DNA from: Bacteroidales bacterium
Lineage (GTDB): Bacteria > Bacteroidota > Bacteroidia > Bacteroidales > F082
DNA length: 64,000 bases
Assembly (NCBI GenBank): GCA_017549805.1
Contig: JAFYNJ010000002.1
Span: 48,429-112,428 of the forward strand
Direction: 5' to 3'
This document shows, piece after piece, positions 2,549-57,998 of the stretch (its first letter is position 1; the number at the start of each line of letters is the position of its first letter). A model generated the notes under the pieces. The model saw only the letters and a list, made by a program, of their open reading frames with translations, did not search any database and was not told the DNA's origin. Both the position numbers and the translations under genes were made by a program.

Positions 2549-4564
2549 CTACGGCATCAGCACATCATGCTGCACCACAAAACGACTGACCAGCTCGAAA
2601 TCGTCCAATTCCACCTTGTATTGCTGAAATAGCTTATCATTGTCGATGGCATAGCCAATGATAAAAGGATCCAATTTGATCAGGGTGTTCCTGCTGATGT
2701 AATAATTGTCGCTCAGGTAATCGACCACATCGCGGTTGTTACGCATGAAAGCCAGCTTCCGGGTGTTTCTGTAGTCGGCCACGGTGTCGAACGAAGTGCC
2801 CAGCCAATGGCAATGGTCGTCAATGGCATAATCATAATTGGTGTGGAGATAAGCGTTGACCGAAGGCGTGACATCGAGATGCGAGACCACCGCCTCCATG
2901 GTCTTGGACTGTTTCACCAACGGTGAATAAACAATCAACGGGACGTTGTAATAACGCAAACCGACACCTGGAATTACCGGCGCCATGCGGTGATCCCCCG
3001 TGATCACAAAAACCGTATTGTCAAAATCAGGGCGGGAAGCATAATAGTCGAACAACTGCTTGATGCTTTGATCCAGGTAAAGGAAGCAGGCATAGATGTT
3101 GAGGTTTTTCATCACGTTGTCGCGTTCCTTTTCCGACAAGGCGAGGGTTTGCTCCAACATCGACAGCACTTGCTGTTCGTATGTCTCTATCCCATCTACC
3201 ACAAAAGGTTCGTGGGTGGTCAAGGTCAGATAGATGTCAGCATGGGGCCGTTGCTCATCTACAGTTTTTTTATGCTGGATGGCGCAATCAAACAGTTGGT
3301 CGTCGTCCAAGCCCCAGCGATAGTTTTCCGCCAAAAGCTTATAATGCGCGGAATCGTCCACCACCAGATTGGGCTCGAAAAGATAATCCACATGGTTTTC
3401 ACGCATGAACACGTCATAATGGTCGAAGTTCACGTCACCGCCATAATAAAAGGATGTGGTGAAGCCGTTACGCTCCATATCGAGCATCAGGGAATGGTGT
3501 CGCGGCATGGGCAGATTCCAAGTAAAGCCATGCCTGCCGTGCGGCGCAGAAGCAAATAACGAAGGAAGCACCCCGAAAGTACGTTCAGAGGTGGAGAAAC
3601 AATTGGGCCAAAACAAGCCTTCGGAAGCCAAACTGTCGAGGAAAGGCGTAAACGACAACATGGGATGGGTGACACCTGTCAAACGACGACCCAAACTCTC
3701 CACTACGATAAAGACCAGATTGGGCGGCAAGCCGTCGGAAGTGGGATTAAGAAATGACCCTAACACATCGGGATCATTGGCTTGGCGGTAAAAAGGATAG
3801 CCCGGATGGTCGTAGTTGAATTCAGGATGTAGGGCTTGATAGGCTTCCACTGCTTCGGCCGAGTAGGGATAGCTGTCGCCTTCGGCGTTGCGCTTCATCT
3901 CTTTCCGATAATCATTGATCTTGATCCAGGCGTATGACGGCTGGTTGACGGCAAGACAGAAGTCGTTGTGGTTGGCATACCGGCTCTCCTTACGGATCAT
4001 GTTAGGATAACGGACGAAGATGGTAACTAAGATGGCGATGCCCACGAAAAAGGCGTTATTCACGTCATTGCGAGCGAAACAAGCGCCACACAGTAATAAA
4101 ACCAACACCGGCACTCCCACCAGCAACACGAACCATAACACCTGCACCCACGAGAGCGAAGCCGACGAGAACACTGTTGTCTTGAGCTCTTCGAACGAAT
4201 AAACCAACACCACATGATCCAAAGGCATGCCGAGATTGCAATAATACTCCGCGAACAAAGCCGAAACCACCACATACAAGACTATCAACCCGATGAAGAT
4301 GCCTCGTGCCGTCCTGGGGAAAAACCAATGGATCAAGAAAAACGGGATCAGTCCGTAAGTCATGACACGGCACACCAACAGCAAGTCGAAAAGCCCACCC
4401 GATAGTATGGTGAAAAACTGGCTGAAGGCAACATCAAGCCGAAAATGGACCTCCAGGAAAAACCAAAGCCTCATGACGATCAGGCACAGTAGCAGCAAAA
4501 GGTTCAAACGAACCCATTGCCTCAACCCCTCTATCAACTTGTCTTTATTCATGGACGCCGACAA
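2549..4564 (-). CDS. LTA synthase-type sulfatase-fold phosphotransferase (paralog B)
   Basis: 671 residues. About five N-terminal membrane helices (residues 15-185) precede an extracytoplasmic alkaline-phosphatase/sulfatase-fold domain. The metal-binding and nucleophile regions are visible: FIVVESLG (Glu ligand), SERTFGVLPS (candidate catalytic Thr) and FVITGDHR (Asp-His ligands). This is the architecture of LtaS, OpgB and phosphoethanolamine transferases, which move phosphoglycerol or phosphoethanolamine from phospholipid to a glycan. The start overlaps the 3' end of the upstream paralog by 20 bases, indicating one transcript and a tandem duplication. Unlike its paralog, this copy has an unbroken frame. 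The acceptor is unknown. Confidence 0.85.
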   Translation of the reverse strand: MSASMNKDKLIEGLRQWVRLNLLLLLCLIVMRLWFFLEVHFRLDVAFSQFFTILSGGLFDLLLVCRVMTYGLIPFFLIHWFFPRTARGIFIGLIVLYVVVSALFAEYYCNLGMPLDHVVLVYSFEELKTTVFSSASLSWVQVLWFVLLVGVPVLVLLLCGACFARNDVNNAFFVGIAILVTIFVRYPNMIRKESRYANHNDFCLAVNQPSYAWIKINDYRKEMKRNAEGDSYPYSAEAVEAYQALHPEFNYDHPGYPFYRQANDPDVLGSFLNPTSDGLPPNLVFIVVESLGRRLTGVTHPMLSFTPFLDSLASEGLFWPNCFSTSERTFGVLPSLFASAPHGRHGFTWNLPMPRHHSLMLDMERNGFTTSFYYGGDVNFDHYDVFMRENHVDYLFEPNLVVDDSAHYKLLAENYRWGLDDDQLFDCAIQHKKTVDEQRPHADIYLTLTTHEPFVVDGIETYEQQVLSMLEQTLALSEKERDNVMKNLNIYACFLYLDQSIKQLFDYYASRPDFDNTVFVITGDHRMAPVIPGVGLRYYNVPLIVYSPLVKQSKTMEAVVSHLDVTPSVNAYLHTNYDYAIDDHCHWLGTSFDTVADYRNTRKLAFMRNNRDVVDYLSDNYYISRNTLIKLDPFIIGYAIDNDKLFQQYKVELDDFELVSRFVVQHDVLMP

Positions 4565-5681
4565 TTTGCAGATTGAAATTGGATATCAGGAATTCGATCT
4601 GGTCGCCGTTGACGAAATAGCACATCAACTTGTCACCATCGGCATAATGGACCAACGACTTGCTGAGCGACTGGGTCATCGTGAAATGTTGCCAACGGTC
4701 ATAATACTCGTACCAGTCGTAATTGACCATCAAGGTCTTGATGACCTCTCGGTTGCCGTCGGGATGATCCAAGGCATAACCCAAGGTAATCTTCTTGCCG
4801 CCATTTTCCTGCCAAGGAATATAAATGTCGAAATTGCAATACACGATGACCGACTCCAAGCTGTCATACACCGGCTCCATGAACAGGTTGAACGGATACA
4901 CGTTGTTTAGCTTGAAAGCGTTGGTTTTGTCGAGCGTATCGGCAGGTGACACTTGGGTGTGCAACAAAACATAGTTGACCGACTGGGTGCTGTCAACCGA
5001 CAGCAACAGGCATTGCTTATCCTCATCGAGCAATACCAAGGCATCGTTGTTCATCACATAGTCGTCCATGGCCTTGTAGTCGCTCATCAACTTGACCACC
5101 TTCTCCTCCTCCATCGGCGTAATGGTCAGCCGTTCGTTTTCATAGCCGAACTTGTAGATATTTCCTTCGTCATAGAAATAGTCCTTATAGACCATGTTGT
5201 CCATCTTGCGGGAGTTTTTCAGCTGGGGTGTGAAGGTGTTGGCACGGAAAGCAGGAGATACATCAAGACCCGTATTGATCCAGCTGACGATGTTAGGCGC
5301 TTTGACGCCATAGCAATTCTTCATCAAAGCCAAGAATGAGGGCGTGATATCACGATGCGCCACCATGGCTGGAAAACGATGCGGCTCCTTGAGCATGGGC
5401 GACCATATCACGAGCGGCACATGGTATTTGTCGAGTTCTTCCGACTGGGCATTAAAACAATGATCGCCCGTGATGACGAAGATGGTGTTTTCGTATTCCG
5501 GCATGTCGCGGTAAGCCGTAAAGAATTTCCTCAGACAATCGTCAAAGTACAGATAAGAGGCATACATTTCGTACTGTGAAGGCTGGATTTCGTCCAACTG
5601 GCCGCGCTGTTTCAGCTTGTTGATATAGGTCTGGGTGTATTGCTCCTTGTTGGGATAGTCAAAGGGATCGTGGGTGGTCAA
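4545..5681 (-). CDS. LTA synthase-type phosphotransferase (paralog A), 3' part in shifted frame
   Basis: Second half of a gene that begins at 6946. The open frame carries the rest of the sulfatase-fold domain, including FVITGDHCF (Asp-His metal ligands), plus a C-terminal extension of roughly 130 residues absent from paralog B. Its first Met (in TLTTHD) is internal to the conserved block YLTLTTHDPF, which paralog B has as YLTLTTHEPF, so this is not a natural start. The shift relative to the 5' part lies in a three-copy heptad repeat at 5704-5727. Adding one 7-bp unit gives an 802-codon frame; removing two gives 795. Either a phase-variable OFF state, a degraded gene or a consensus error. Confidence 0.75.
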   Translation of the reverse strand: MTTHDPFDYPNKEQYTQTYINKLKQRGQLDEIQPSQYEMYASYLYFDDCLRKFFTAYRDMPEYENTIFVITGDHCFNAQSEELDKYHVPLVIWSPMLKEPHRFPAMVAHRDITPSFLALMKNCYGVKAPNIVSWINTGLDVSPAFRANTFTPQLKNSRKMDNMVYKDYFYDEGNIYKFGYENERLTITPMEEEKVVKLMSDYKAMDDYVMNNDALVLLDEDKQCLLLSVDSTQSVNYVLLHTQVSPADTLDKTNAFKLNNVYPFNLFMEPVYDSLESVIVYCNFDIYIPWQENGGKKITLGYALDHPDGNREVIKTLMVNYDWYEYYDRWQHFTMTQSLSKSLVHYADGDKLMCYFVNGDQIEFLISNFNLQIVGVHE

Positions 5682-5683
5682 AG

Positions 5684-6946
5684 TCAGGTAGATGTCGAGC
5701 GTAGGTGAGAGGTGAGAGGTGAGAGGTTTCTTTTCTCGTTCAAGGATTCGGAAAAGAGGTATTCATCATAGAGACCCCAGGTGTTTTGCATCTCGGGAGG
5801 ATAGTTGCTGTGGTCGGGAAGGTAACCCTCCACGCCCAAGTCGTTCAGGAAGTAGCACATGTCGTCGAAACAAGTCCATCCACCATAGAAGAATGAAGGA
5901 TAATAGCCGTCGTTCTTTAGGATATCGATCAGGGAATGGAAGCGCGGACAGTTGGATGACTGCATGAAACCCCGTTTGCCGAAGGGAAGGCTGCCGAACA
6001 TGGTGGGAAGCACCGCAATGGTTCGCTGCGACGACGACATGCAGTTGAGCCAGCACAAACTCTGGTCGGCCAAAGAATCCAAGAAAGGCGTGGCTGATGG
6101 ATATTTGCAGTTGTAACCGCTGAACTCACGGCTCAAGCCTTCGGTGATGACAAACACCAAGTTGGGTTTTTTATCAGGATTCAAGTTGAAATAGGGCGAT
6201 AGAACATCGGGCGATTGGTCCACATGGGCAAAAGGATAGCGGTAATCTACGAAGTCGTCTTCGGGAAACATGGATTGGAACTCCAGGATGCGTCCTCGCT
6301 GTGCTTCCAGATCCTTCGGGTTGAAACGGTTAAACATGGCCTCCTTGTCGAACAGGCTCCTCCAGAAGAATTCCTGCTTGTTGCACATCACGCCGGACGG
6401 CATCTTCCAGCAGCACAATCCAGCAACGGCCAAGCCTAACCACACAAACAATCCCCATCGACCTATTTTCACAATATGGCGCGACACCACGAAGAACAAG
6501 ATGGGAATTCCCAATAAGCACACATAGCTCCACCACACAAAACTGCCCGTGGATTTGGAAATATAGATCAGCTCCTTGATGGAATAGTCAAAAAACACCT
6601 TGTCGAGCGGAATGTAAGCCGAGATGAAATACATGATCATCGCGTTGGATACCAATAACATCAAGGCTCCAATGACACGGAATGCCCATTTGGCCACATT
6701 CGGCGACCAGCGATGAAGCAAGAGATAAATCGGACAAAGAACCAATGCGAACTTGCTGAAAACAAGGATGTCGTAGCCAAATCCCTTCAAACACAGCAAA
6801 AAGTGCTTTCCAACTTCCTGATGGTAGTAGCCCAACACCACGGCCTCAAACACCCTGACCGCGAAACCGAACACCAACATCCAGAACAGGAAGTTCAGGA
6901 AACCCTGAATTCCACCTGTTTGCTTTTTGTCCCTATTGTTTTCCAT
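5684..6946 (-). CDS. LTA synthase-type phosphotransferase (paralog A), 5' part, frame broken by heptad repeat
   Basis: N-terminal membrane helices (about residues 15-190) followed by the first half of the sulfatase-fold domain: FVITEGLS (Glu ligand) and SSQRTIAVLP (candidate catalytic Thr). The frame enters the repeat array at 5704-5727, reads out LSPLTSHL and stops soon after, before the Asp-His metal ligands, so the product should be inactive. The ATG at 6946 is preferred over a TTG two codons upstream. The gene lies 11 bases after the acyltransferase stop in the same leftward operon. See the entry at 4545-5681 for the continuation and the finding on phase variation. Confidence 0.78.
   Translation of the reverse strand: MENNRDKKQTGGIQGFLNFLFWMLVFGFAVRVFEAVVLGYYHQEVGKHFLLCLKGFGYDILVFSKFALVLCPIYLLLHRWSPNVAKWAFRVIGALMLLVSNAMIMYFISAYIPLDKVFFDYSIKELIYISKSTGSFVWWSYVCLLGIPILFFVVSRHIVKIGRWGLFVWLGLAVAGLCCWKMPSGVMCNKQEFFWRSLFDKEAMFNRFNPKDLEAQRGRILEFQSMFPEDDFVDYRYPFAHVDQSPDVLSPYFNLNPDKKPNLVFVITEGLSREFSGYNCKYPSATPFLDSLADQSLCWLNCMSSSQRTIAVLPTMFGSLPFGKRGFMQSSNCPRFHSLIDILKNDGYYPSFFYGGWTCFDDMCYFLNDLGVEGYLPDHSNYPPEMQNTWGLYDEYLFSESLNEKRNLSPLTSHLRSTST
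5704..5727. repeat. heptad repeat array a (GGTGAGA x3), inside paralog A
   Basis: Three perfect tandem copies of GGTGAGA plus three bases of a fourth (CTCTCAC on the coding strand). None of the three frames through the array contains a stop. The gene's upstream and downstream frames differ by exactly the amount that +1 or -2 repeat units would correct. Confidence 0.95.
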
Positions 6947-6957
6947 GATCAAAGTAT

Positions 6958-8544
6958 TTAGTACAATATATCCACCTTGGCATTCTCAAAACGGGCATTG
7001 CCTTGTTGGTTGTTCCAAAAATAGATACTTAGTTTCTTTCCTTTCATGCTTTTATTGAAAGGACAAAGGATCTGCTCGTTGAACTCGAAGGTATTCATGT
7101 CTGTTGTGTGACAACTTGCAGGCAATTCAATCGACTTCCAAAAGACATTGGGTATAGACAGCACCAGCTGAGGCAAAGGAGCCGTGGGATCCAAACTGCA
7201 TACATCAACGGAACCTTTGACGGAAAGGGCAGAATAGCGCTGTTCCAACGGAACATTGACAAAAGTGGCGTAAACCATGTCGGTTTGAATGGTTCCTTCT
7301 GTATTGGATTCACCCGTAAAAACCAAAGGTTCGTCAAACTTGTTGAGGTTCTGGTAAATGAAATAACCGAAAACAAAGGCAAAAAACAACCCCAAGGTAA
7401 CGGCGCAAACGTTACTGATTATACGGGTCAAGCGATTTTCGCGAAGATGGATCCGATCCAACAAGGAAACTAAGAAGGTGTACAACGGCTTTGCCGCCAA
7501 GGCGATACCCCAAACCAGCAAGAAGAATAGCAAGCCTGAGGCCAGATGTCCCCAGGCACTTGTCATCGTATTGGCCCATTTCAGCACGGGAACCCTGAAA
7601 TAGCCATGAACGATGAACAGCATCATGGAGATACCGCCGAAATAGTGGAGAACGGAAAGTGGATAACGGAAAACTTTTTTCCATTTTCCGTTTTTTGCTT
7701 TCCAGGCCTGGGTGACAAACACGGTAATGACACAAAGCGACAGGAAAGTGAATGGATAGAATCCCGGGGCGAAGTTACCCCAAACAAACAACACCAAGGC
7801 CAACAACAACCACAGCCAATGGATTCGCTCGTCCTTGTTGAAAGCCAGCATCATGCCGAAACAGAACTCGGGCAGATGGCCAGGGGCGTTTTGCATAAGG
7901 ATGGTACCGTGATGAAGGTTGAGGTATTCGCGGAATAGAAATATCAAGCCGTATGAGACCGCCAACACTACCAAAAACGCTTTCCAACGCCATTTCTTGA
8001 TACAGCGGAACAGCAGCGGAAACAACAAGTACAACTGGAAAATCAATCCAAAAAACCACCAAGGACCGTTGATGCTCAGCCCAGAATTGGGAATCAGGGT
8101 GTGAATGAACAAGAACTTATATCCTATCTCACGCCACTCCCCTTGGTTAAACAACCTTCCGTTCATCACGAGGCAGCCCAACAAACAAACCACCACTCCA
8201 GTAATCAAGAGGGGATAGAGTTTCTTGAGTCGGTTGATCACAAACTCGCCCCACCCCTGCTCACGACGCAACATGGAGAGCGTCAGGCCCAAACCGGAGA
8301 CCATTACAAAAAGCTGCACGCCATAGTGCCCGAAATAACTGAAAAGGATGTTGACGAACTCGCCAGGCTGCTGGCCCAACAAATCAAAGAAGTTATGGAC
8401 CCTGGAGGGAGAAAAGTCGAACTCGTTTTCCCCTGGCGAAGGTGCCAGCCAATGAAAATAGTTGTGAAAGACGATGCACAGGATGGCAAAGCCTTTGATG
8501 ATGTCGGTATCGCGTTTCGTATAACTATTCAATGACAACTTCAT
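6958..8544 (-). CDS. acyltransferase family 3 membrane protein
   Basis: About 528 residues with some ten hydrophobic helices. The N-terminal block RDTDIIKGFAIL, followed by an IVFHNYFHW segment, is the hallmark of the acyltransferase 3 (OafA/NodX-type) family, where a His-containing helix supports acyl transfer to sugars. A C-terminal soluble region of roughly 120 residues follows the last helix. I chose the ATG at 8544 (MKLSLNSY) over an upstream TTG; it overlaps the GH16-like gene by 20 bases. A 7-bp-periodic stretch at 7644-7704 encodes the loop KNGKWKKVFRYPL between helices. Probably decorates the same surface polymer as its operon partners. Confidence 0.85.
   Translation of the reverse strand: MKLSLNSYTKRDTDIIKGFAILCIVFHNYFHWLAPSPGENEFDFSPSRVHNFFDLLGQQPGEFVNILFSYFGHYGVQLFVMVSGLGLTLSMLRREQGWGEFVINRLKKLYPLLITGVVVCLLGCLVMNGRLFNQGEWREIGYKFLFIHTLIPNSGLSINGPWWFFGLIFQLYLLFPLLFRCIKKWRWKAFLVVLAVSYGLIFLFREYLNLHHGTILMQNAPGHLPEFCFGMMLAFNKDERIHWLWLLLALVLFVWGNFAPGFYPFTFLSLCVITVFVTQAWKAKNGKWKKVFRYPLSVLHYFGGISMMLFIVHGYFRVPVLKWANTMTSAWGHLASGLLFFLLVWGIALAAKPLYTFLVSLLDRIHLRENRLTRIISNVCAVTLGLFFAFVFGYFIYQNLNKFDEPLVFTGESNTEGTIQTDMVYATFVNVPLEQRYSALSVKGSVDVCSLDPTAPLPQLVLSIPNVFWKSIELPASCHTTDMNTFEFNEQILCPFNKSMKGKKLSIYFWNNQQGNARFENAKVDILY
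7644..7704. repeat. heptad repeat array b, inside the acyltransferase gene
   Basis: Degenerate 7-bp-periodic tract whose left arm is purine-rich (units such as GGAAAGT and GGATAAC) and right arm pyrimidine-rich, so GGAAAA and TTTTCC can pair as a hairpin. It is read in frame as a cytoplasmic-type loop. Confidence 0.75.
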
Positions 8545-10402
8545 AGACGCGGCCTTCAATATCGGTTTTGTTATAAGGAATCAATCCCTGTTCCCAGACG
8601 ACAGGCGGCCACCATTCGGAGTAATGGTACTCCTGGGTGACAATACACTTCATCTGGTTGTTGGGAATGCTGGTGTGCTGGCTATCCATATAGCCCATCA
8701 CTTCCATGTGGTCAGGATCGGGGCCAAGACGCCAGATGATCGCATCGGGACGCCATTCGATCTCATAAAAGTACCATGGCTCCTTGAAATCGCTGTTCGG
8801 CATCGGGGTACGGGTAGTCAATGCCTTGTAGTTGGGGTACCATCGCATGGTCTCGAACCGGCGTTTTTTGTCGTAATCAATGGTATCAAGCCCTCCTTTG
8901 AACATCGGAGGTTCAGTGGAAGCCAGGTCCCAGTTGGTGCAGCAATACATCACATCGTTGTTCAAGGTGGCGTCTTCCTCGCAGTTCTCCCTGTCGCCAC
9001 GGAACCATTGATAATAACTCCAAGGCCAGTGTTTTGAGGCCTTCACGATCTCGATGTCAATCTCCGAATAAGGATGGTATGGCGTGCGTTGCGGGTTCTC
9101 AGAGTCGTCCCACTTGGGGATGTAGCCGCCGTCTTTAAAACATGGCCGGCGATTGTTCCAAGCTCCTCCATCGGCATAAATGAGCCAGAAAGCGTATGTC
9201 AAGCCGTTCCATAGATTCTCATCGTTGAGCATGACGGGGAACTTGATCTTGCCTCTGAACTTTCCGTATGTGAAGCCCAGTTTTGAGATGATGCCCGTGG
9301 ATTCCTTGCGCAGGTTGCCTTCGGTGCTGGCCGGATTGATCAGCGTGATGTATTCTCCGTCGGGACTGGCTTTCACCGTAGCGCCGGGCGTTTCGCTAAC
9401 TACAGGATAATCCATCATCAGCTCCGTTGAGTCGAAACGGGTTTTATTGGCTTCGTATTCCTCACGGGTATAAGGATCATCGCCCACCACATCCTTGATA
9501 ACCGGGATGTTGCGCAACGTGAATTGACGGCTCACATGGCTGAAAAACTGTTCGAACAGAGGTGCCTTGAGCACCGCACGGGTCTTCAGCATCTTACCCG
9601 AGGTATAAGTCTTGATGTGCTTGGACGGATGGGTTTCATACCAACCGAAAGGATTCACAAAGACACCATGTTCATTGGCTTGTCCAATGAATTGGACATA
9701 ATCGGGAATCTCAGCCAAGCCTTCCTCGTCACAGACCACCAGCATAAAGCCGTATTTCCCTGCTCGGGGATTGCGTTTCCAACGCTGGTTGTCCGCTTTG
9801 CTTAGATCGATTCCATTCATCCATGCTGCATCAATGAGCGTTTGGTCGTCAACACTGATGTGATTGTTCACCGCCTTCTCAACAATGGAATTGTACCATT
9901 GCTTGTCGTTACCGATGTTTTGGACCACCGTGTTGATCTGGGATTTTATGTTGTGGTTTTCAGTCGCGGCATTCCCGTAATAAAGCCTTTCGTCCCTCGG
10001 GTTACCCACAATGCGAAGCTCGTCCCTGACGATCCTGTTTTCAATGGGCTTGAAGCCGATGTTTACATCTTCCCAGCTACCATAGAAATTCTCCGCTGCC
10101 AGCGCACTGGTATCGGGAAACTTATAACTCTCGTTCTGGTAATAGATCTTGTAATAGAAGCCTTTTTTAGGGGCAATGAAACGAAATCCGAAAACACCCT
10201 CCCCTTCCTTGGTCTGTTTGGCAGATGGGATATAGATGCCATCGGTCACGGCGTTTTCCAAGTCCATATCCAGACTAACCGTGCGACCGATGCCAAAATT
10301 GGTCATCGGACGGAAATGGCAGGTCATGCGTTGGCGGATGAAAAAAACAACTATTGCCAGCAGCAGGACAGACAGCAGGAACAAAGGGAAGCGCTTTTTC
10401 AT
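8525..10402 (-). CDS. GH16-like glycan-active protein, membrane-anchored
   Basis: 625 residues. An N-terminal hydrophobic segment (about residues 5-22) acts as signal or anchor, followed by about 310 residues of unrecognised sequence. The C-terminal half resembles a concanavalin-type glycoside hydrolase family 16 domain, with SEIDIEI (Glu447, Asp449, Glu451) matching the GH16 catalytic pattern ExDxxE/ExDxE and with flanking Trp-rich segments. GH16 enzymes cut or transfer beta-1,3/1,4-glucans and galactans. The start overlaps the stop of the CotH gene by four bases (ATGA), so the two are coupled. I infer processing of the polymer handled by this cluster; substrate unknown. Confidence 0.7.
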   Translation of the reverse strand: MKKRFPLFLLSVLLLAIVVFFIRQRMTCHFRPMTNFGIGRTVSLDMDLENAVTDGIYIPSAKQTKEGEGVFGFRFIAPKKGFYYKIYYQNESYKFPDTSALAAENFYGSWEDVNIGFKPIENRIVRDELRIVGNPRDERLYYGNAATENHNIKSQINTVVQNIGNDKQWYNSIVEKAVNNHISVDDQTLIDAAWMNGIDLSKADNQRWKRNPRAGKYGFMLVVCDEEGLAEIPDYVQFIGQANEHGVFVNPFGWYETHPSKHIKTYTSGKMLKTRAVLKAPLFEQFFSHVSRQFTLRNIPVIKDVVGDDPYTREEYEANKTRFDSTELMMDYPVVSETPGATVKASPDGEYITLINPASTEGNLRKESTGIISKLGFTYGKFRGKIKFPVMLNDENLWNGLTYAFWLIYADGGAWNNRRPCFKDGGYIPKWDDSENPQRTPYHPYSEIDIEIVKASKHWPWSYYQWFRGDRENCEEDATLNNDVMYCCTNWDLASTEPPMFKGGLDTIDYDKKRRFETMRWYPNYKALTTRTPMPNSDFKEPWYFYEIEWRPDAIIWRLGPDPDHMEVMGYMDSQHTSIPNNQMKCIVTQEYHYSEWWPPVVWEQGLIPYNKTDIEGRVYEVVIE

Positions 10403-12240
10403 TGGCGGACGATTTTGGTGACAAAGTTATCCATTTTCAGGACATAAAAGCCTGATGGAAGCGAAACATCCAACCTGATCGTGTTGGTACCCGCATTCAA
10501 AACAACGGCTTGAGCATAGACTTCCTGACCCAACATGTTGAATACCCGCACTTCACTATGCTTGGATTCGGTAGAATTTACACAGAGTGTTACATGATCA
10601 ATGAATGGATTGGGATAACAGGCAAATGACAAAGAAGAGTCGGGAACGTCCGACGAAGGCAAGAAATGCTCGAGCCTTTGGCGCATCACTTGATTCAACG
10701 AACGAAGATGCGCATCCACATGGTCCACGTCTTCCTCCCATTTTGATACGCTGGAGGGAAAACCAAAACGATTGCTTTGATTGGGCACTTCCGCTTCGAC
10801 AAGAGAACACAAAGCGTTGAAACGTGGTGTAATCTGTTCGTATCGCAACGGGTCGGACATCAGTTGAATGAATCGGTTTCTAAAACGATATTTGAACTCA
10901 CTATTGTTGAGAAGCTTCCTAAAAAACAGGGTAGCCTGAAAAAAGGAAGGGTTGTTCCCGTTAACGAAGGTGCTGGTGTCCGTAGCACTGGAAAACACAT
11001 CCCAATCACGGAAGAAACAGCCGTCGCCGTCATAGAACATCCAACGCCATGGACCATCGCCGCGTTGCCAACAACGGACATTGTTTTTCGGCCAGTCGAC
11101 ATTGGAGGAATAAAGTTCGAAAACCTGATAATCGATGAAATTATCCATGTCGATCTTTTCGCTCAACAAACGATAGTTCTCCTCGAGCGACATATCGGCA
11201 TCCATCACCCAATTGAACAAGTCGTTCCATTGGGTATCATCGCCGTTTTCCAGAAAAATCCATTGCTTGATGATGTTGCTTTCCTCCACATCGATACCAA
11301 AATGGTCTTCCAGATAACGCTCATCGGGCGTTTCCTCCAAGGCATAGATGCCCCAGTATTCTCCGTTCAGGAAAAGCACCATCTGCCTGGAAGCCAAGCA
11401 GTCGATATGAAGGGATCTGGCAACTTGTTGTGCCAAATGGTCCTGTATGCCGGTAGTCATCCAGTTACTGCATCTGAACGGCTTGATGCTCAAATGCTTG
11501 TAACTTTCAATGGGGAGGTTTTCTTGAAAAAAGACATGTTCAAAACGCTTTTTCCCATAGATTTCCCTGGCATAGATCTTGAAACCTTTTTGCTGGAAAC
11601 GCCTTGAAGCGCCCCCATGGGTACGCAGTCCGGCAATTTGGTTGATGCCGGTATTGTCGGCTTCATAAAACTCAACGTTACAGGCACGTTCCCAATCCAT
11701 CCCCTTGCAGAAATAGTTGCCCGTCCAATCGGGAAGGTTAGGACTTTGATAGCCACCAGGCACCATGATTCCTGTGTAATAGTTGAAGAGTCCAACGGAG
11801 TCGGAACACAACGACATCACTGGAAGACCATGGGTATTACAACCCAAGGCGTGGATAAAGTAGCTGTTGGTGGCTACTTCACTGATGCAATCGTCGTTTT
11901 CGTCAAACACGGCAGCACGGATCACGATGCAATGCTGGATGCTATCGGGATAGAACATCTGTCCGTCTGGAGCAACCTGGATGGTATAGATGTCAGACCT
12001 GGAATAAAGGCTTTCGTCCAACAGCAGCGGACCGGTGTAAAGCCGTGACTGTGCTGTTGGACGATTGCCATTGGTGGTGAAACGAATATGGTGTTGCTGA
12101 TAAAAGGGGAAGATCTCCAATGTGGGCGATTCCTCATAAAAGCCTCCCGGCACCGAGAAACAGGCCTTCTCGGCAGGTTGCGACAATGCAAAAAGCGGTG
12201 CCAGCAATAGAGACCATATCAGTAACCGTTTACCTTTCAC
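10399..12240 (-). CDS. CotH-like kinase protein with T9SS C-terminal sorting domain
   Basis: 613 residues. A signal peptide (cleavage after about residue 20, LFALSQ) is followed by a short chitobiase-like segment (FTTNGNRPT), then a CotH domain (about residues 140-470) with the GLRTHGGASRR and FYDGDGCFF blocks, the latter holding the metal-binding Asp-x-Asp. It ends in a T9SS type A sorting domain (CYPNPF near the beginning, GLPSGFYVLK-like end). CotH of Bacillus spores is a secreted protein kinase; this one should be exported through the outer membrane. The start is GTG at 12240, within a heptad repeat, with a stop two codons upstream in the same frame, so no earlier start is possible. Confidence 0.85.
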   Translation of the reverse strand: MKGKRLLIWSLLLAPLFALSQPAEKACFSVPGGFYEESPTLEIFPFYQQHHIRFTTNGNRPTAQSRLYTGPLLLDESLYSRSDIYTIQVAPDGQMFYPDSIQHCIVIRAAVFDENDDCISEVATNSYFIHALGCNTHGLPVMSLCSDSVGLFNYYTGIMVPGGYQSPNLPDWTGNYFCKGMDWERACNVEFYEADNTGINQIAGLRTHGGASRRFQQKGFKIYAREIYGKKRFEHVFFQENLPIESYKHLSIKPFRCSNWMTTGIQDHLAQQVARSLHIDCLASRQMVLFLNGEYWGIYALEETPDERYLEDHFGIDVEESNIIKQWIFLENGDDTQWNDLFNWVMDADMSLEENYRLLSEKIDMDNFIDYQVFELYSSNVDWPKNNVRCWQRGDGPWRWMFYDGDGCFFRDWDVFSSATDTSTFVNGNNPSFFQATLFFRKLLNNSEFKYRFRNRFIQLMSDPLRYEQITPRFNALCSLVEAEVPNQSNRFGFPSSVSKWEEDVDHVDAHLRSLNQVMRQRLEHFLPSSDVPDSSLSFACYPNPFIDHVTLCVNSTESKHSEVRVFNMLGQEVYAQAVVLNAGTNTIRLDVSLPSGFYVLKMDNFVTKIVRQ

Positions 12241-12276
12241 CTTTTAGTTTTCAATTTTCAGTTTCTTCCACTTCCC
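12233..12276. repeat. heptad repeat array c, S46/CotH junction
   Basis: 7-bp-periodic pyrimidine-rich tract on the + strand (units such as ACCTTTC and AGTTTTC). It supplies the GTG start codon of the CotH gene and the last codons (EETEN) of the upstream peptidase gene. Confidence 0.88.
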
Positions 12277-14496: not shown

Positions 14497-14520
14497 ACTT
14501 TCATCTTTCACCTTTCACTT
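14497..14520. repeat. heptad repeat array d, between two peptidase genes
   Basis: Three near-perfect copies of CTTTCAC/CTTTCAT on the + strand, in the gap after the M49-like gene and touching its stop codon. Confidence 0.92.
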
Positions 14521-16149
14521 TAACAAAACATCCGGTCCCATGTTGTAGTAAATGTCCGTCGGGACACCGGCTTTGTTGACGCGGTCGAGGTCGGCCTGCA
14601 GTTCGGGATGGATCACGCTCATCTCGCCCAGCCAAGCTTTGGCGGCTTCATAGTCACCATTACCCTGGCAGATCAGAATGTCGCCGGCGAGTTTTTCCAC
14701 AGCAGCCTTCATCTTGTCGAAGTCGATGGCATAAAGGCCATTCTCATCACGAGTGAAAGCGCCTTCTTTTTGCATATAATTGAATTCAAGCATGTTGGCT
14801 TTGCCGTGGGCACTGGCTGCACCGAAACGCACCGAACGGAAGATGCCAGCAAGGAAGGTGACATAGTTGTCAACCATCTCGGTATTGGTGTATTCACCCA
14901 TCTCGGCCAGTTTGGTCACAAGGAACAGACCCAGCACATCGGCTTTGGCTTCTTCGATGGCATTGTAGGTGTTACCAAGGGCGCTGTGGACAGAACCTTT
15001 TCCTGTGATGGTGTTCTTGATGCCCATGCCGTGGGCAGTCTCGTGGAACATCACATTAGCGAAGAAGGCATCAAACTTGATGTGCTCCATCGATTCGGGC
15101 GTCATGAGGGTCTTGGCGATCGGGACGAGGATGTTTTCAAACTTGGCCTGCATGGCGTTTTTCAGCTGAAGCTTGCGGGTGCCTCTTTCGAGCTGCACAC
15201 GCTCGTCGTTCGGAAGATTGATGGCAATGGTCTTGCTGTTGGCGTTGCAGTCGCCGGCATAATATACAGCGTCGTAGGCGGCAAGATCCACATCCGATCC
15301 TGGCACTTCCTTCTTGTACTCATCCGGCACAGGAAGCTGCTTCTGGAGCTCTGGAACAAACTGGGCGTAACGGGCCAGCTGCTTCGTCCACTCCTGGTCC
15401 TTGATCAGGATGAAAGCCTCATGAGAAGCCTTGATGCCGTAACGGGCATCGGTGTAGTTTTCAATGGGACCAATCACCATGTCGATGTTGTTGTTGCGGA
15501 CATCCATCCAACGCATGTCGCTTTCAAAATAGTCGTCGGTGCGGAGCGCCTTGGCGCGAAGGGCCAGATAGGTAGCAAACTCCTCATCACCGGCCAACTC
15601 GGAGGCATCGTCGAGCAAGGAAGCTGCCTTCTTGATCTGTTCTGCAAAATAGTCGTGGTACCACACACATTTCAGATTGCCGTTTTCATCGCGGACAATC
15701 ATGGTGTATTGGCTGGTCTTGTCAGGATCGTCGAAAGCGTTCCATTCCTCCTCAGTCATGTCCTGGGGATAGAACTGGGCACCTGCAGGTTTTTCACCAA
15801 CGCCTTCCACAAAGGGCTTGTTGCCGTCGAGGCCATCCCAGGGACCGTAAGTGATGCAAGCGAACTTTTGCAAGTCGGGATCACCAATCTTGGCCATCAG
15901 TTCCTCTTTGTCGCCATAGTTTTCTTTCCAGAAAAGGTCTTCCATAATGTCGGCCGCTTCGAAAAGCAGAGGCAACATTTCCTTTTCATTTTCGCTCAAA
16001 TGGCTGATGTCGGTTGTCAGCGTGTATTCGGCATACTTGTCGATCAGCTTGGGTTGAGGTTGTTCTTCCACTACTTCTTTAGGTTTGTTGGTACAGGCAA
16101 CGGCTACCAAAGCCACGGCCATAATGTAAGTTAAGTGTTTGATTTTCAT
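14515..16149 (-). CDS. M49-like (dipeptidyl-peptidase III family) zinc peptidase lipoprotein
   Basis: 544 residues with a lipoprotein signal (lipobox LVAVAC, Cys19). The zinc site is visible as HETAH (His369, Glu370, His373) followed by EEAKAD (from Glu399), the spacing of M49 dipeptidyl-peptidases III. Classical M49 enzymes carry a six-residue HExxGH; here the motif is a five-residue HExxH, as in a minority of bacterial members. Bacterial relatives are often labelled Zn-dependent hydrolase. I infer an envelope-anchored exopeptidase acting beside the S46 enzyme. The ATG at 16149 is preceded by a TAnnTTTG-type element on the same strand. Confidence 0.85.
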   Translation of the reverse strand: MKIKHLTYIMAVALVAVACTNKPKEVVEEQPQPKLIDKYAEYTLTTDISHLSENEKEMLPLLFEAADIMEDLFWKENYGDKEELMAKIGDPDLQKFACITYGPWDGLDGNKPFVEGVGEKPAGAQFYPQDMTEEEWNAFDDPDKTSQYTMIVRDENGNLKCVWYHDYFAEQIKKAASLLDDASELAGDEEFATYLALRAKALRTDDYFESDMRWMDVRNNNIDMVIGPIENYTDARYGIKASHEAFILIKDQEWTKQLARYAQFVPELQKQLPVPDEYKKEVPGSDVDLAAYDAVYYAGDCNANSKTIAINLPNDERVQLERGTRKLQLKNAMQAKFENILVPIAKTLMTPESMEHIKFDAFFANVMFHETAHGMGIKNTITGKGSVHSALGNTYNAIEEAKADVLGLFLVTKLAEMGEYTNTEMVDNYVTFLAGIFRSVRFGAASAHGKANMLEFNYMQKEGAFTRDENGLYAIDFDKMKAAVEKLAGDILICQGNGDYEAAKAWLGEMSVIHPELQADLDRVNKAGVPTDIYYNMGPDVLLK

Positions 16150-17854: not shown

Positions 17855-17979
17855 AATTTGGAGCAATTACAGTTTTTCGGTGCCTTGCGTTGGCCGAAAT
17901 GCTGATGGCTGCTGCAGCTCGCTAAAAGCAATGCGATAACCAATACCAAAAGAGATACTATGATTCTTTTACCTTTCAC
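17851..17979 (-). CDS. 42-residue lipoprotein with Cys-rich tail
   Basis: A tiny gene that I found by translating the gap. GTG start, then MKGKRIIVSLLV, a hydrophobic stretch and lipobox LLASC (Cys22), ending in KNCNCSKF. Short lipoproteins with a C-terminal Cys-x-Cys tail are widespread in Bacteroidota, but I know no function. It lies 25 bases downstream of the EnvC-like gene on the same strand, so it is probably the last gene of that operon. A TGA two codons upstream of the GTG rules out an earlier start; the start codon is inside heptad array f. The 3' end overlaps the convergent carrier gene by four bases. Confidence 0.75.
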   Translation of the reverse strand: MKGKRIIVSLLVLVIALLLASCSSHQHFGQRKAPKNCNCSKF

Positions 17980-17997
17980 CTTTCAATTCTCATTGTT
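17970..17997. repeat. heptad repeat array f, at the small lipoprotein start
   Basis: Units ACCTTTC, ACCTTTC, AATTCTC on the + strand. The complementary strand supplies the GTGAAAGGTAAA start region of the small lipoprotein gene, the same 12 bases that begin the CotH gene. Confidence 0.9.
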
Positions 17998-18004
17998 TAC
18001 CTAA

Positions 18005-19258
18005 TCATTTTGCAAGCCAAATCGATGGATTCAAACAATCTGTTCCTTGCCGAAGCTCGAAATGCAATTCCGTCTTGCCTTCCGAACGGTCGGTATGGAT
18101 CTTGCCTATCTCCTGTTTGGTCTTCACCTTGTCGCCACGGTTCACAAACACCGCATCCAGCTGGGAATATACGGTGAAATAGTCGCCATGACGGATGATG
18201 ACGCCGATGTTGGAAGCCGATGGCTTGACCACGCTCACCACCACACCTTCAAACACGCAACGGGCCTTGGCATTTTCGGCCGTTGCAATATCTATGCCGT
18301 TGTTGGTCACCGTGACCTTGCTCGAAACGGATGAGGTGTGCTTGCCGTAGGAACTCGAAATCACACCGCGTTCCACTGGCCAGGGAAGCTTGCCCTTGTT
18401 GGCCGAAAAACTTGTTGCCAGCGCTTTTTCCGAAGGTGTTAGAGCCATTTTGTCGGGCTTGGTGCTGGTGCTTTTCTTGGTGTTTTTGGCATTTTTGGCC
18501 TCTTTGGCGGCTCGTTCATTTGCTTTCTTGATTTCTTCAGCAATAATCTTGTCGATTTCCTTTTGGAACTTCTTGGCTTGAGCTTGTTTGTCCTTAATGC
18601 TTTGCTGGATCTTTCCCTCTTGTTTCTTCAGCTGCTTAACCTGGGTGTTCAGTTCTTCTTTCTCTTTCACCAAAGCATTTTGTTGGGCTTTTTCTTCAGC
18701 CAGCAAAGCGGCCTGTTCTTCTCTTGCCTTTCGGTTATTTTCCACTTCTTCGCTCACTTTTTTCTGAGCACTTGAAATCTGATCCATCTTGGTTTTCCGA
18801 GCATCAGTGAACTGCTGTATGTAGCGCATCCTTTGGAAAGCCTGGTTGAAGTCCTCCGAAGCAAACAGGAATTCCAACTGGTCGTAATGGCTTCTGTTTT
18901 TATAGGCAAACTCCACCATCTTGGAATACTCCCCACGCAGCTTGCCAAGCTCTCCGTTCAACTTCTTTATGTTGCTCTCCCCTTGATTAATGGATTGATC
19001 AAGCAATCTGATTTGTTCATTGCAAGCATTGATGAGTTTCTGGCGGTTTTGGATCTTTTTGTCCAACAAATTCACCTGATTCAAGGTCACTTCCTTGTTT
19101 TTGGAAGTCTCCTTCAACAGCTTGTTGGCGGTCTCTATCTCCTTCTGAAGGGATTTTATCTCCTTTTCCAGCGATGCCTTGGTACGCTGCGCGTAGCCTG
19201 CCCCGACAAAGAGAAGCGTCAGCATCATGATCATTATGGTTTTCAAATAGCGTCTCAT
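18005..19258 (-). CDS. EnvC-like murein hydrolase activator (coiled coil plus degenerate LytM/M23)
   Basis: 417 residues: signal peptide (to about residue 23), a long charged coiled coil (about 25-265) and a C-terminal LytM/peptidase M23 domain (about 290-417). The domain keeps HFELRQG near its end, but the zinc-site His of the usual HxxxD motif is replaced by Asn (NNGID), so it is probably not a hydrolase. That is the hallmark of EnvC/NlpD, which switch on cell-division amidases in the periplasm. The start overlaps the stop of the DUF4292 gene (ATGA). Part of a four-gene envelope operon with the TPR protein, DUF4292 and the 42-residue lipoprotein. Confidence 0.88.
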   Translation of the reverse strand: MRRYLKTIMIMMLTLLFVGAGYAQRTKASLEKEIKSLQKEIETANKLLKETSKNKEVTLNQVNLLDKKIQNRQKLINACNEQIRLLDQSINQGESNIKKLNGELGKLRGEYSKMVEFAYKNRSHYDQLEFLFASEDFNQAFQRMRYIQQFTDARKTKMDQISSAQKKVSEEVENNRKAREEQAALLAEEKAQQNALVKEKEELNTQVKQLKKQEGKIQQSIKDKQAQAKKFQKEIDKIIAEEIKKANERAAKEAKNAKNTKKSTSTKPDKMALTPSEKALATSFSANKGKLPWPVERGVISSSYGKHTSSVSSKVTVTNNGIDIATAENAKARCVFEGVVVSVVKPSASNIGVIIRHGDYFTVYSQLDAVFVNRGDKVKTKQEIGKIHTDRSEGKTELHFELRQGTDCLNPSIWLAK

Positions 19259-19758
19259 GGCTTCAGCTTCATCCTTTCATACTTTTGGTTGATTTTGATG
19301 GGGAAAGTGGTCGGTTCATCCCAATGGATGTCGGCATAACGGATTTTTGCCTTGTATGGACCGAATTGCATCTCCACATGGTCGCTGGTGCCGTCACCCA
19401 GCAGCATGGCCTGCAATTCCTGTAGAGACGGAGTACTTATCGTCTCTGCTACCTCAGAAAACGGCTCGGCAAGATAGCTTTGCTCCACCCGGTTGACGAC
19501 GATGATGGAATCTTGGGTGATCCGTGTGCGGATGCTTTCGATGCCCATCATAGCGGATGCCGAGATCCAAATAGTACTGTCGCGACGCATCCTAAGCGTT
19601 CCAGAAAAAGGAAACTCTCCGCTCTCAACTGTCAACTCTCCGTTTATCTTGGCGCTCATCCACTCATAATTGGCGGCATGTGCCATGGGCGAAACCAACT
19701 TTTTTCGAGAAGAGCACGACGCGGCGAGCAACAATAGCATTGTTGCCATCAACATCAT
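19255..19758 (-). CDS. DUF4292 lipoprotein
   Basis: About 167 residues from the ATG at 19758, giving a compact lipoprotein signal (MMLMATMLLLLAAS, then Cys). A TTG 63 bases upstream would put a long polar tail in front of the signal and overlap the TPR gene, so I reject it. The body (SGTLRMRRDSTIWISASAMMGIE) matches DUF4292, a family related to LolA/LolB-type outer-membrane lipid carriers and usually found beside an EnvC-like gene as here. It is shorter than most family members, which run about 230-270 residues. A heptad repeat at 19613-19641 encodes part of the first strand region. Confidence 0.8.
   Translation of the reverse strand: MMLMATMLLLLAASCSSRKKLVSPMAHAANYEWMSAKINGELTVESGEFPFSGTLRMRRDSTIWISASAMMGIESIRTRITQDSIIVVNRVEQSYLAEPFSEVAETISTPSLQELQAMLLGDGTSDHVEMQFGPYKAKIRYADIHWDEPTTFPIKINQKYERMKLKP
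19613..19641. repeat. heptad repeat array g, inside the DUF4292 gene
   Basis: Four 7-bp units of the form AACTCTC/CGCTCTC on the + strand, read in frame on the minus strand as ELTVESGE. Confidence 0.85.
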
Positions 19759-19774
19759 TCCTATGGAAACTCTG

Positions 19775-21400: not shown

Positions 21401-21432
21401 TTTCAGTGTTCAGCTTTCAGTTCTCAGCTTTT
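21398..21432. repeat. heptad repeat array h, between the TPR gene and dut
   Basis: Five units of the type TTTCAGT/TCAGCTT on the + strand. They fill the gap between dut and the TPR gene and provide the last codons and stop of dut. Confidence 0.9.
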
Positions 21433-49466: not shown

Positions 49467-50174
49467 TTACAATCCTTTCACATGCGGTTTTCCCGCCACA
49501 AAATCCTTCAGATAGAAAGGCTCGAAATAAGCCACATCCACAAAGTCTTTTTCCTTTAAGGCTTGGTCGGCCAAAGCCGCCATATAAGCTGCCGAAGGAG
49601 CAAAGTCGTCAACAACATGAACCTGATCCACTGCATCAAAAAGCCCGTGAAGCTTGGGAGCGCCGTCGCCGAAAAGCCAAAGACGTTGAGGTGAGAGGTG
49701 AGAGGTGAGAGATGAGAGGTGAGAGCCATTATCGAACACTACGGCATTGGTATCTTTAATGCGATTCAAGTTGGCACCGAATACAGAGCAATACACTTCC
49801 ATGCGGCGCGCATCGATCATGGGAACGAACAAATCGGCAGGCTGCACATCGTCACCCAAACGGGAACGCATCCCGTAGGCCATGGCATGCATGGTATCTA
49901 TCGCCATCAAAGGCAATCCTGCAGCATAGCATACGCCCTTTGCAGTACTGACACCGATGCGCAAGCCTGTGTAGGAGCCAGGCCCCTTGCTCACTGCCAC
50001 CGCGTCCAGCTGGGCATAGTCAATCCCAACTTCATCCATCACTTCCTTGATGAAAATGGTTATCTTCTCCGAATGGGCGTTCTGGCCTTTGCACTCCCTT
50101 AACGCCAAGGTTTTCAGTCCGTCGTTCAAGGCTACGGAACAAGTGGGGGTGGCCGTTTCAAGGCATAGGATCAT
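49467..50174 (-). CDS. tsaB: tRNA threonylcarbamoyladenosine biosynthesis protein TsaB
   Basis: 235 residues. Partner of TsaD in making t6A at position 37 of ANN-decoding tRNAs, normally essential. The N-terminal ILCLETATPTCSVAL and the VSKGPGSYTGLRIG segment are characteristic. Heptad array l (49688-49725) encodes NGSHLSSLTSHLSPQ in the middle of the protein, just before LWLFGDGAPK, in a region that varies in length among relatives. The frame stays intact, unlike the same repeat in the phosphotransferase gene. The M28 peptidase gene follows. Confidence 0.93.
   Translation of the reverse strand: MILCLETATPTCSVALNDGLKTLALRECKGQNAHSEKITIFIKEVMDEVGIDYAQLDAVAVSKGPGSYTGLRIGVSTAKGVCYAAGLPLMAIDTMHAMAYGMRSRLGDDVQPADLFVPMIDARRMEVYCSVFGANLNRIKDTNAVVFDNGSHLSSLTSHLSPQRLWLFGDGAPKLHGLFDAVDQVHVVDDFAPSAAYMAALADQALKEKDFVDVAYFEPFYLKDFVAGKPHVKGL
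49688..49725. repeat. heptad repeat array l, inside tsaB
   Basis: Five units GAGGTGA (the fourth is GAGATGA) plus three bases; the same repeat sequence as array a. Read in frame in an essential gene. Confidence 0.95.
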
Positions 50175-57219: not shown

Positions 57220-57242
57220 GCTCAAACTTGGACGAATACATC

Positions 57243-57998
57243 ATGGAGCGTCAACCCCTGGTTTCCGTTATCATGCCATGCTACAACATGGAAAGGTTTC
57301 TGCCGCAGACCATCGCGTCGGTGGTGCAGCAGACCTTTGAGGATTGGGAACTGATTATCGTTGACGATGCCTCCACCGACGGAACCGTGGAAGTGCTACA
57401 GCGCGCCGGGGAGCAAGACCGGCGCATCCATTGGACAGCCAAAACGGAACATTCAGGCATTGCCGACACCCGCAACCGCTGCCTCCAAACCGCCAAGGGA
57501 CGTTTTCTCGCCTTCTTGGATGCCGACGACCTTTGGTATCCCGAGAAACTCCAACGGCAGTTGCAGTTCATGGAAGAACACGGAAGCTGTTTCAGCTACA
57601 CTTCCTATCGGCTCATCGACGAAGAGGGTAACGACCTCGACAAGACCGTCCGGGTGTCCGGCAACCTCGATTACAACGCCTACCTGCGCAACACCATCAT
57701 CGGCTGTTCCACCGTGATGATCGACCGGGAGGCCGTCGGCGAGGTGAAGGTGCCTTCGTTTCGCACCAGCGAGGACACCGCCACTTGGCTCGACATCCTG
57801 AAAAAAGGCTTTGTCGCCCATGCTTTCGACGAACCCTTGACCGCCTACCGCGTCAGGCGACAATCTGCCAGCTCCAATAAAATGAAGGCCTCCTACGACC
57901 TTTGGAAGGTTTACCGCAACCACGAAAAACTGCCTTTCTTCAAGGCTTTGTATTGTTTTTGCCACTATGCATTCAACGCCGTCAAAAAACGTCTATGA
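57243..57998 (+). CDS. family 2 glycosyltransferase
   Basis: 251 residues from the ATG at 57243 (MERQPLVSVIMPCYNMERF). GT-A fold with VDDASTDGTVEVL and FLDADDLWYPEKL (DxD-type motif), typical of GT2. Adds a sugar from a nucleotide donor to a lipid carrier or glycan. The start is 23 bases after the PglF-like gene, and its stop overlaps the next start (ATGA). The acceptor is unknown; probably builds the glycan whose donors the upstream genes make. Confidence 0.92.
   Translation: MERQPLVSVIMPCYNMERFLPQTIASVVQQTFEDWELIIVDDASTDGTVEVLQRAGEQDRRIHWTAKTEHSGIADTRNRCLQTAKGRFLAFLDADDLWYPEKLQRQLQFMEEHGSCFSYTSYRLIDEEGNDLDKTVRVSGNLDYNAYLRNTIIGCSTVMIDREAVGEVKVPSFRTSEDTATWLDILKKGFVAHAFDEPLTAYRVRRQSASSNKMKASYDLWKVYRNHEKLPFFKALYCFCHYAFNAVKKRL

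What the first reader, a model, noticed from the sequence alone, without database searches (positions are those of the whole stretch)
4545..6946. Heptad repeat splits a phosphotransferase gene in the way a phase-variation switch would
The LTA-synthase-type gene is interrupted at three perfect GGTGAGA copies. Upstream and downstream parts are in different frames; 2402 bases from ATG to stop is not divisible by 3, but one extra unit (2409) or two fewer (2388) is, and no stop arises in the repeat in any frame. Slipped-strand mispairing could therefore switch the product between a truncated protein lacking the Asp-His metal ligands and a full 802- or 795-residue enzyme. The intact tandem paralog next door would provide basal activity. 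A consensus or assembly error at the repeat is the main alternative.
Basis: partly seen in the sequence, partly recalled or inferred. Interest (0 to 1): 0.8.

Follow-up and report, generated by a model that had tools for sequence, protein, structure and literature searches.

The report
Seven-base repeats threaded through bacterial genes
The broken gene holds a short seven-base repeat that relatives carry intact at the same place, and the same kind of repeat sits inside many housekeeping genes of this bacterium, so it looks like a widespread slip-prone repeat rather than a purpose-built on/off switch.

Summary
In detail: an LTA-synthase-like gene is split at a 25-bp GGTGAGA array, and 2402 nt is not a multiple of 3. 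Context weakens the switch reading. The array belongs to a dispersed family (RGTKRRR heptads: 124 overlapping 21-mer hits in this genome; hits in 25 of 80 genomes of the order, own included). Many lie inside genes. In three complete site sets (40 sites), 20 of 23 arrays that I could place inside genes keep frame (chance 1/3). At the finding's site 5 of 6 relatives carry heptads; all six are open, and the two closest measure 96 nt against 89 here. The half after the array is under the same purifying selection as the half before. In the same assembly single-copy asd and a manC-like gene are out of frame at the same heptad; tsaB is in a relative. Since asd cannot be lastingly off, such breaks are recent one-unit slips or consensus artefacts. 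I favour an old in-frame microsatellite that lost one unit, with switching unproven. New is the sight of in-frame heptads in core genes, at kept sites, with unit sequence changing between species.

The parts
5703..5727 (.). GGTGAGA heptad array, 3.6 perfect units; the coding strand reads TCTCACC (SPLTSHL in every frame)
   Evidence: TRF; pattern
5684..6952 (-). First half of the LTA-synthase-like phosphotransferase gene: membrane helices and first part of the catalytic domain; the frame ends a few codons after the array
   Evidence: ORF; Pfam PF00884 profile 1-156; alignment
4545..5681 (-). Second half of the same gene (rest of the catalytic domain with the invariant Asp-His, then a C-terminal part), open in another frame
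   Evidence: ORF; Pfam PF00884 profile 173-299; dN/dS
2549..4564 (-). Intact tandem paralog, no heptads at the matching loop in the alignment
   Evidence: ORF; PF00884; alignment
49688..49725 (.). Second GGTGAGA array in the window, 5.4 units, in frame inside the tsaB-like gene
   Evidence: TRF; ORF 49467-50174; homologs
49467..50174 (-). tsaB-like gene (name read by eye) carrying the in-frame array
7644..7672 (.). Imperfect period-14 repeat that reads as related heptads, inside the intact acyltransferase frame 6958-8559
   Evidence: TRF; ORF; Pfam PF01757

Best explanation
The split gene encodes a membrane phosphotransferase of the LTA-synthase/alkaline-phosphatase superfamily. A heptad microsatellite (RGTKRRR family, here GGTGAGA) has occupied a loop between a helix and the strand that leads into the second half of the active site since before these species diverged, normally with a unit number that keeps frame. 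It belongs to a family of heptad arrays spread over this genome and its relatives, which are tolerated in genes where they keep frame, mostly read on the stop-free strand, and which turn over by gain, loss and substitution of units. In this assembly the array is one unit shorter than in the two closest intact relatives, which breaks the frame. The loss is either a recent slip in the sampled cells or arose in sequencing or assembly; it is not evidence of a dedicated phase switch. Shown: the array, the shared site, frame keeping, no visible decay, the same break in other genes. Inferred: slippage as the cause, the exposed position of the loop, the lack of a regulatory role.
For: Six distinct relatives are open (frames of 802-842 aa); five carry heptads at the same loop, one (G010/L093) has none; the site measures 96 nt in the two closest and 89 nt here. 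Frame keeping in complete site sets: G000 GGTGAGA 6 in frame and 3 shifted; G000 AGTTGAG 7 of 7; G049 GGTGAGA 7 of 7; together 20 of 23, P 1.6e-7 against one third. Left out of the 40 sites: 2 unclear and 15 at gene ends or between genes. Counting only sites where the codon model alone gives the same verdict, 12 of 15, P 2.9e-4. All three G000 shifts change phase the same way. asd: heptads of differing unit sequence in one loop in the 7 array-bearing genomes that I could read there, in frame in 6; G070 and G049 asd differ at dS about 0.1, yet their arrays differ by 21 nt, three units. Downstream half of the finding's gene: dN/dS 0.064 and 0.053 to the two closest relatives, upstream 0.062 and 0.067. 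AlphaFold2 model of the intact relative (mean pLDDT 73.7): residues 407-412, inside the heptad-encoded stretch and between helix 392-405 and strand 416-422, are one of seven segments below 50.
Against: No within-species copy-number polymorphism could be shown; the 30,774-base redundant contig overlap has one mismatch and no gap, so its arrays are the same. Three units is short for a fast-slipping repeat. The gene sits near surface-polymer genes (MBOAT, AlgX-like, acyltransferase, CotH), where phase variation would make sense. dS exceeds 1 to the closest relatives, so a very recent loss of constraint would not be visible. Frame status rests on open frames, a codon model and partial homology, not on expression; for 8 of the 20 in-frame sites the codon model alone did not give that verdict. 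At tsaB and the manC-like gene most of the other genomes examined have no clear heptads.
Confidence: 0.7

Rival explanations
1. True phase variation: slipped-strand mispairing at the array switches this phosphotransferase on and off in the population, with the tandem paralog giving basal activity.
For: Perfect tandem units, not a multiple of 3, and no stops; no decay of the downstream half; unit number and sequence differ between species; neighbours that look like surface-polymer genes.
Against: Same family of arrays in genes that read as asd, tsaB, mfd, ileS, nqrA/B, frdA/sdhB and sufS; in frame in the five array-bearing relatives; asd and a manC-like gene also shifted in the same assembly. 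Intragenic heptad tracts proposed as phase variable in Haemophilus have 8-14 units and the hmw promoter tracts 13-38, though one tract upstream of a receptor gene has 1-7 (PMC2651432, passages); here three to four.
Confidence: 0.13
2. Consensus, library or assembly artefact: the true array keeps frame and one unit was lost in amplification, read correction or assembly.
For: asd, found once, is out of frame in a genome scored 100% complete, which is hard to reconcile with living cells; tsaB likewise in G051; the three shifts of G000 lie among its six perfect intragenic GGTGAGA arrays of 23 nt or more and change phase the same way.
Against: A 30.8-kb dovetail contig overlap with one mismatch suggests a long-read, string-graph type of assembly (inference), where k-mer collapse of arrays this short is not expected; the other three arrays of that size class kept frame; intragenic AGTTGAG arrays of 28-33 nt kept frame in 7 of 7 cases.
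Confidence: 0.37
3. Recoding: the genes really are out of frame and ribosomes or RNA polymerase recover the frame on the array, since in a heptad every codon recurs 7 nt further on, in another frame.
For: asd in G000 and tsaB in G051 appear frameshifted at the array while both asd halves stay conserved. Precedent: a frameshift in E. coli rpoB suppressed at 5% on a heptanucleotide (PMC7022156, abstract).
Against: With efficient recovery about two thirds of intragenic arrays should be out of frame; 3 of 23 are. No slippery motif or stimulator was looked for beyond RNA folding; the window's array does not fold clearly better than shuffles (z -1.2), though that of asd does (z -3.75).
Confidence: 0.05
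4. Dead gene: the frameshift is fixed and the locus is a pseudogene.
For: A paralog is present next door.
Against: Both halves are open end to end and under equal purifying selection, within the limits of high dS.
Confidence: 0.08

Closest known systems
Heptanucleotide long simple sequence repeats of prokaryotes (Mrazek 2007, known to me through PMC4679880; not read itself), with the heptamers of cyanobacteria, Xanthomonas and Beggiatoaceae
   Same: Dispersed tandem 7-mers with a patchy distribution; TAACTGA repeats are reported in five Bacteroidetes (PMC4679880, passages); GGGAATC-type repeats in Xanthomonas and Nostoc (PMC4692102, passages)
   Different: Described there as mainly intergenic (68% in Nostoc); here 25 of 40 sites of the three complete sets are inside genes or unclear, 20 of them in frame, and some sites are shared across species; the unit is RGTKRRR
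Heptanucleotide phase-variable loci of Haemophilus influenzae (hmw1A/hmw2A promoters; intragenic tracts in hmw1A of PittAA and in HI1369 homologs)
   Same: 7-nt units, also within frames, with a frameshift put down to unit number (PMC2651432, passages)
   Different: Mostly more units (8-38, one tract 1-7) and at surface genes; here three to four, and the family also fills housekeeping genes
LtaS / phosphoglycerol transferase branch of the alkaline phosphatase superfamily
   Same: Sulfatase domain PF00884; best solved matches 3lxq and LtaS by sequence and by fold; membrane helices at the N-terminus
   Different: 19% identity to 3lxq in the structural alignment; further C-terminal part; substrate unknown
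Rickettsia palindromic elements (recalled, not tested)
   Same: Small repeats tolerated in frame inside many unrelated genes
   Different: Those are longer palindromic elements (recalled); these are 7-nt tandem units

Membership tests
Heptanucleotide simple sequence repeat (LSSR) | Tandem 7-nt units above chance | tested here: met
Heptanucleotide simple sequence repeat (LSSR) | Dispersed over the genome and shared with relatives | tested here: met
   17 distinct GGTGAGA sites in G000; the GGTGAGA trimer in 8 of 60 genus genomes, own included; RGTKRRR trimers in 25 of 80 order genomes, own included
Phase-variable contingency locus | Unit not a multiple of 3 within a frame, so that unit change breaks the frame | tested here: met
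Phase-variable contingency locus | Copy-number polymorphism within a species | not testable with these tools
   one genome per species; no reads; the redundant overlap is identical but for one base
Phase-variable contingency locus | Repeats concentrated at surface or host-interaction genes | tested here: not met
   By listing only, no enrichment test: genes that read as mfd, asd, tsaB, ileS, sufS, nqrA and frdA carry them
Phase-variable contingency locus | Off states seen among orthologs | tested here: not met
   six of six distinct relatives open; a small sample, one genome each
LTA-synthase-like phosphotransferase (PF00884) | Sulfatase/alkaline phosphatase fold with conserved metal ligands | tested here: met
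   ligand roles recalled from LtaS
LTA-synthase-like phosphotransferase (PF00884) | Catalytic activity and lipid substrate | not testable with these tools
   no NCBIfam equivalog cut-off reached

The most novel reading that the evidence does not exclude
The heptads are not only passive slippage products. An active copying or templating process seeds and homogenises them across the genome: genomes differ in their leading units (GGTGAAA in G004, GGTTAAA and AGTTGAA in G070, AGTTGAG and GGTGAGA in G000, AGTGGAA in G010), the same protein loop carries different units in different species (asd), and some forward arrays are paired with reverse arrays as hairpins. Core proteins then evolve around them in frame, with out-of-frame copies in essential genes tolerated for short times.
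Probability: 0.2. Interest if true: 0.78.

Novelty: new variant of a known kind. Interest (0 to 1): 0.5.

Why it matters
The heptads in the papers that I saw are described as mainly intergenic. Here a non-triplet microsatellite is carried in frame by many core genes, at sites partly kept across species, while its unit sequence changes. That is a natural experiment on slippage, frame selection and loop tolerance, and it warns that frameshifts at such repeats in draft genomes should not be read as phase switches or pseudogenes without reads. If the out-of-frame essential genes are real, the lineage would test frame recovery on repeats.

Tried and rejected
A transketolase thought to be split by a sense-strand array (L018): rejected, since the N-terminal half has its own frame of 275-308 aa in the eight genomes with a close match; the array lies between two genes. 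Arrays scored as shifts by the codon model but lying at gene boundaries were not counted: L013, L024, L183 and, in partial sets, L061 and L062. L011 and L212 were left out of the frame count as unclear. L004, L010, L017, L160, L178, L198, L200 and L207 were counted as in frame from open frames and homologs although the codon model alone did not say so; without them the count is 12 of 15. RGTKRAR as unit consensus was wrong: it misses GGTGAGA, and its reversed control matches a rotation of GGTGAGA; the control shares GTG units, so neither control is a null, and control counts exceeded pattern counts in four of eight genomes. Hairpin of the window's own array: not clear (z -1.2, 21 of 200 shuffles as good). 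Literature: a search for literal heptad repeats in six spellings found 4 papers, judged unrelated from titles and abstract starts; among the papers listed (capped lists in most) I saw none on this family beyond the heptad papers cited; the library lacks most subscription journals. Other split genes in the window: two regions of overlapping frames (18005-21400, 55294-58783) looked ordinary by eye; no full check was made.

Full report
Observation. The array (5703-5727, 3.6 perfect units), the frame arithmetic (2402 nt, remainder 2) and the split of one Sulfatase domain into two frames are as described. The lack of stops is not a special property: on this strand any TCTCACC tandem reads the same seven codons in all frames, whereas the other strand meets TGA in every frame.

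Not alone. The same heptad sits at 49688-49725 inside an intact tsaB-like frame. The genome holds 27 overlapping hits of the dimer, 18 places, 17 once a 30.8-kb contig overlap is taken off. With the broader unit RGTKRRR, the 21-mer pattern has 124 overlapping hits in this genome and at least one in 25 of 80 genomes of the order, one per family and own included; my rough estimate from even base frequencies is about 0.04 per genome by chance, and the tool's reversed control is not a null here because it shares units. GGTGAGA trimers occur in 8 of 60 genomes of the genus, own included. The named relatives are Bacteroidales or Bacteroidia MAGs by record title, one from sheep reticulum and several with RUG names, which I take to mean rumen (recalled).

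Inside genes. I placed sites by open frames across the array, a codon-usage model trained on 24 clear genes of the window, and homologs where at hand. Complete sets: G000 GGTGAGA, 17 sites: 6 in frame (U32 peptidase, tsaB, mfd, OAD gamma, a kinase-RapZ fusion, EtfB), 3 shifted (the finding, asd, a manC-like gene), 1 unclear, 7 at gene ends or between genes. G000 AGTTGAG trimers, 9 distinct sites: 7 in frame, 2 at gene ends. G049 GGTGAGA trimers, 14 sites: 7 in frame, 1 unclear, 6 at gene ends or between genes. Together 20 of 23 keep frame against one third expected (P 1.6e-7); by the codon model alone 12 of 15 (P 2.9e-4). The sites are not fully independent: mfd holds two, and the finding's gene and some others occur in two sets. 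Among loci of other genomes that the tool returned (partial sets) most intragenic ones are in frame too, but cysQ of G070 is shifted. Gene names without a Pfam call (mfd, ileS, sufS, nqrA, frdA, tsaB, asd, manC, cysQ) are my reading of the sequences; Pfam supports U32, OAD gamma, RapZ C-terminal, ETF and a 2Fe-2S subunit.

The site. Six distinct relatives of the gene have open frames of 802 to 842 aa across it. Five have heptads at the same loop, with units varying from TCTCACC to TTTCACC and ACTTTCC (the last imperfect, judged by eye); one has none. The two closest measure 96 nt over a stretch that measures 89 nt here. The heptad-encoded residues of the intact relative fall in a segment of low model confidence (407-412, one of seven such segments) between a helix and a strand, before the invariant H426, D495 and H496. 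The fold is that of 3lxq and LtaS. The truncated product would therefore lack a large part of the active site.

Selection. The part after the array has the same dN/dS as the part before it, 0.05-0.07 to the two closest relatives. dS is above 1, so a very recent loss would not show. asd gives a like picture, 0.02-0.06 on both sides.

Essential genes. asd is found once in each of 13 genomes, open in 12 and split at its array only in G000. I could read its loop in 11 of them: heptads in G000, G004, G010, G049, G051, G066 and G070, none in G011, G015, G017 and G020; two rows failed my motifs. tsaB is open in 12 of 13 and split at its array in G051; besides G000 and G051 only G070 and G049, and perhaps G066, show heptad-like remains there. 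The manC-like gene of G000, its only match, is split at its array; G070 carries an in-frame array there, and the more distant copies of the other genomes show none where readable. That asd and tsaB are essential is recalled. Such breaks cannot be steady off states, so the break in the finding cannot by itself be read as a switch.

Turnover. In asd seven species carry differing units in one loop, and G070 and G049, nearly identical in asd, differ by three whole units. Leading units differ between genomes (listing cut by the tool). Some arrays are followed or preceded by their reverse complement and fold as hairpins (z -7.8, -3.75 and -3.0 at L072, L015 and L059; not L017, z -0.75).

Reading. 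An old, in-frame, slip-prone microsatellite of a genome-wide family, which in this assembly is one unit short. Whether the unit was lost in cells or in the making of the assembly cannot be told here. The contig overlap speaks for a long-read assembly and against simple k-mer collapse, while the broken asd speaks for an artefact or a very recent slip. Dedicated phase variation remains possible but is not favoured.

Prior work. Papers seen: PMC4679880 (passages), PMC4692102 (passages), PMC2651432 (passages), PMC7022156 (abstract and opening of the introduction). Heptads as the commonest long simple repeats are known from work described in the first. Among the papers listed in searches I saw no report of in-frame heptads in core genes of Bacteroidales.

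Noticed in passing
window 7644-7672: Imperfect period-14 repeat that reads as heptads of a related kind inside the intact acyltransferase frame, preceded by what looks like inverted heptads (fold z -1.6).
   Followed up: partly
window 12235-12264, 14497-14521, 17966-17985, 21401-21431: Further period-7 or period-14 arrays of TTTCAAC, CTTTCAC or TTTCAGC type at or between gene ends.
   Followed up: no
L004 and L011 (G000), L208 (G049): Stretches such as HCEERSDEAIQ or SLRGAEPSGATRQS in open frames resemble a palindromic repeat recalled from other bacteria, apparently inserted in frame.
   Followed up: no
G000 contig C8:1-30774 and C30:43460-74233 (L172-L175): Two contig ends overlap over 30,774 bases with one mismatch; this may be part of the 7.58% contamination score.
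   Followed up: yes
L072 (G049 C3): Right after a stop codon a long forward-reverse heptad hairpin (z -7.8) is followed by what looks like a second hairpin with a T run.
   Followed up: partly
L130, L135 (G051 C145): tsaB of a relative is split at its heptad array.
   Followed up: yes
L078 (G070 C31): A cysQ-like gene is out of frame at its GGTGAGA array.
   Followed up: partly
L213-L220: The N-terminal part of transketolase has its own frame of 275-308 aa in eight genomes of this genus, so the enzyme is probably made of two subunits.
   Followed up: yes
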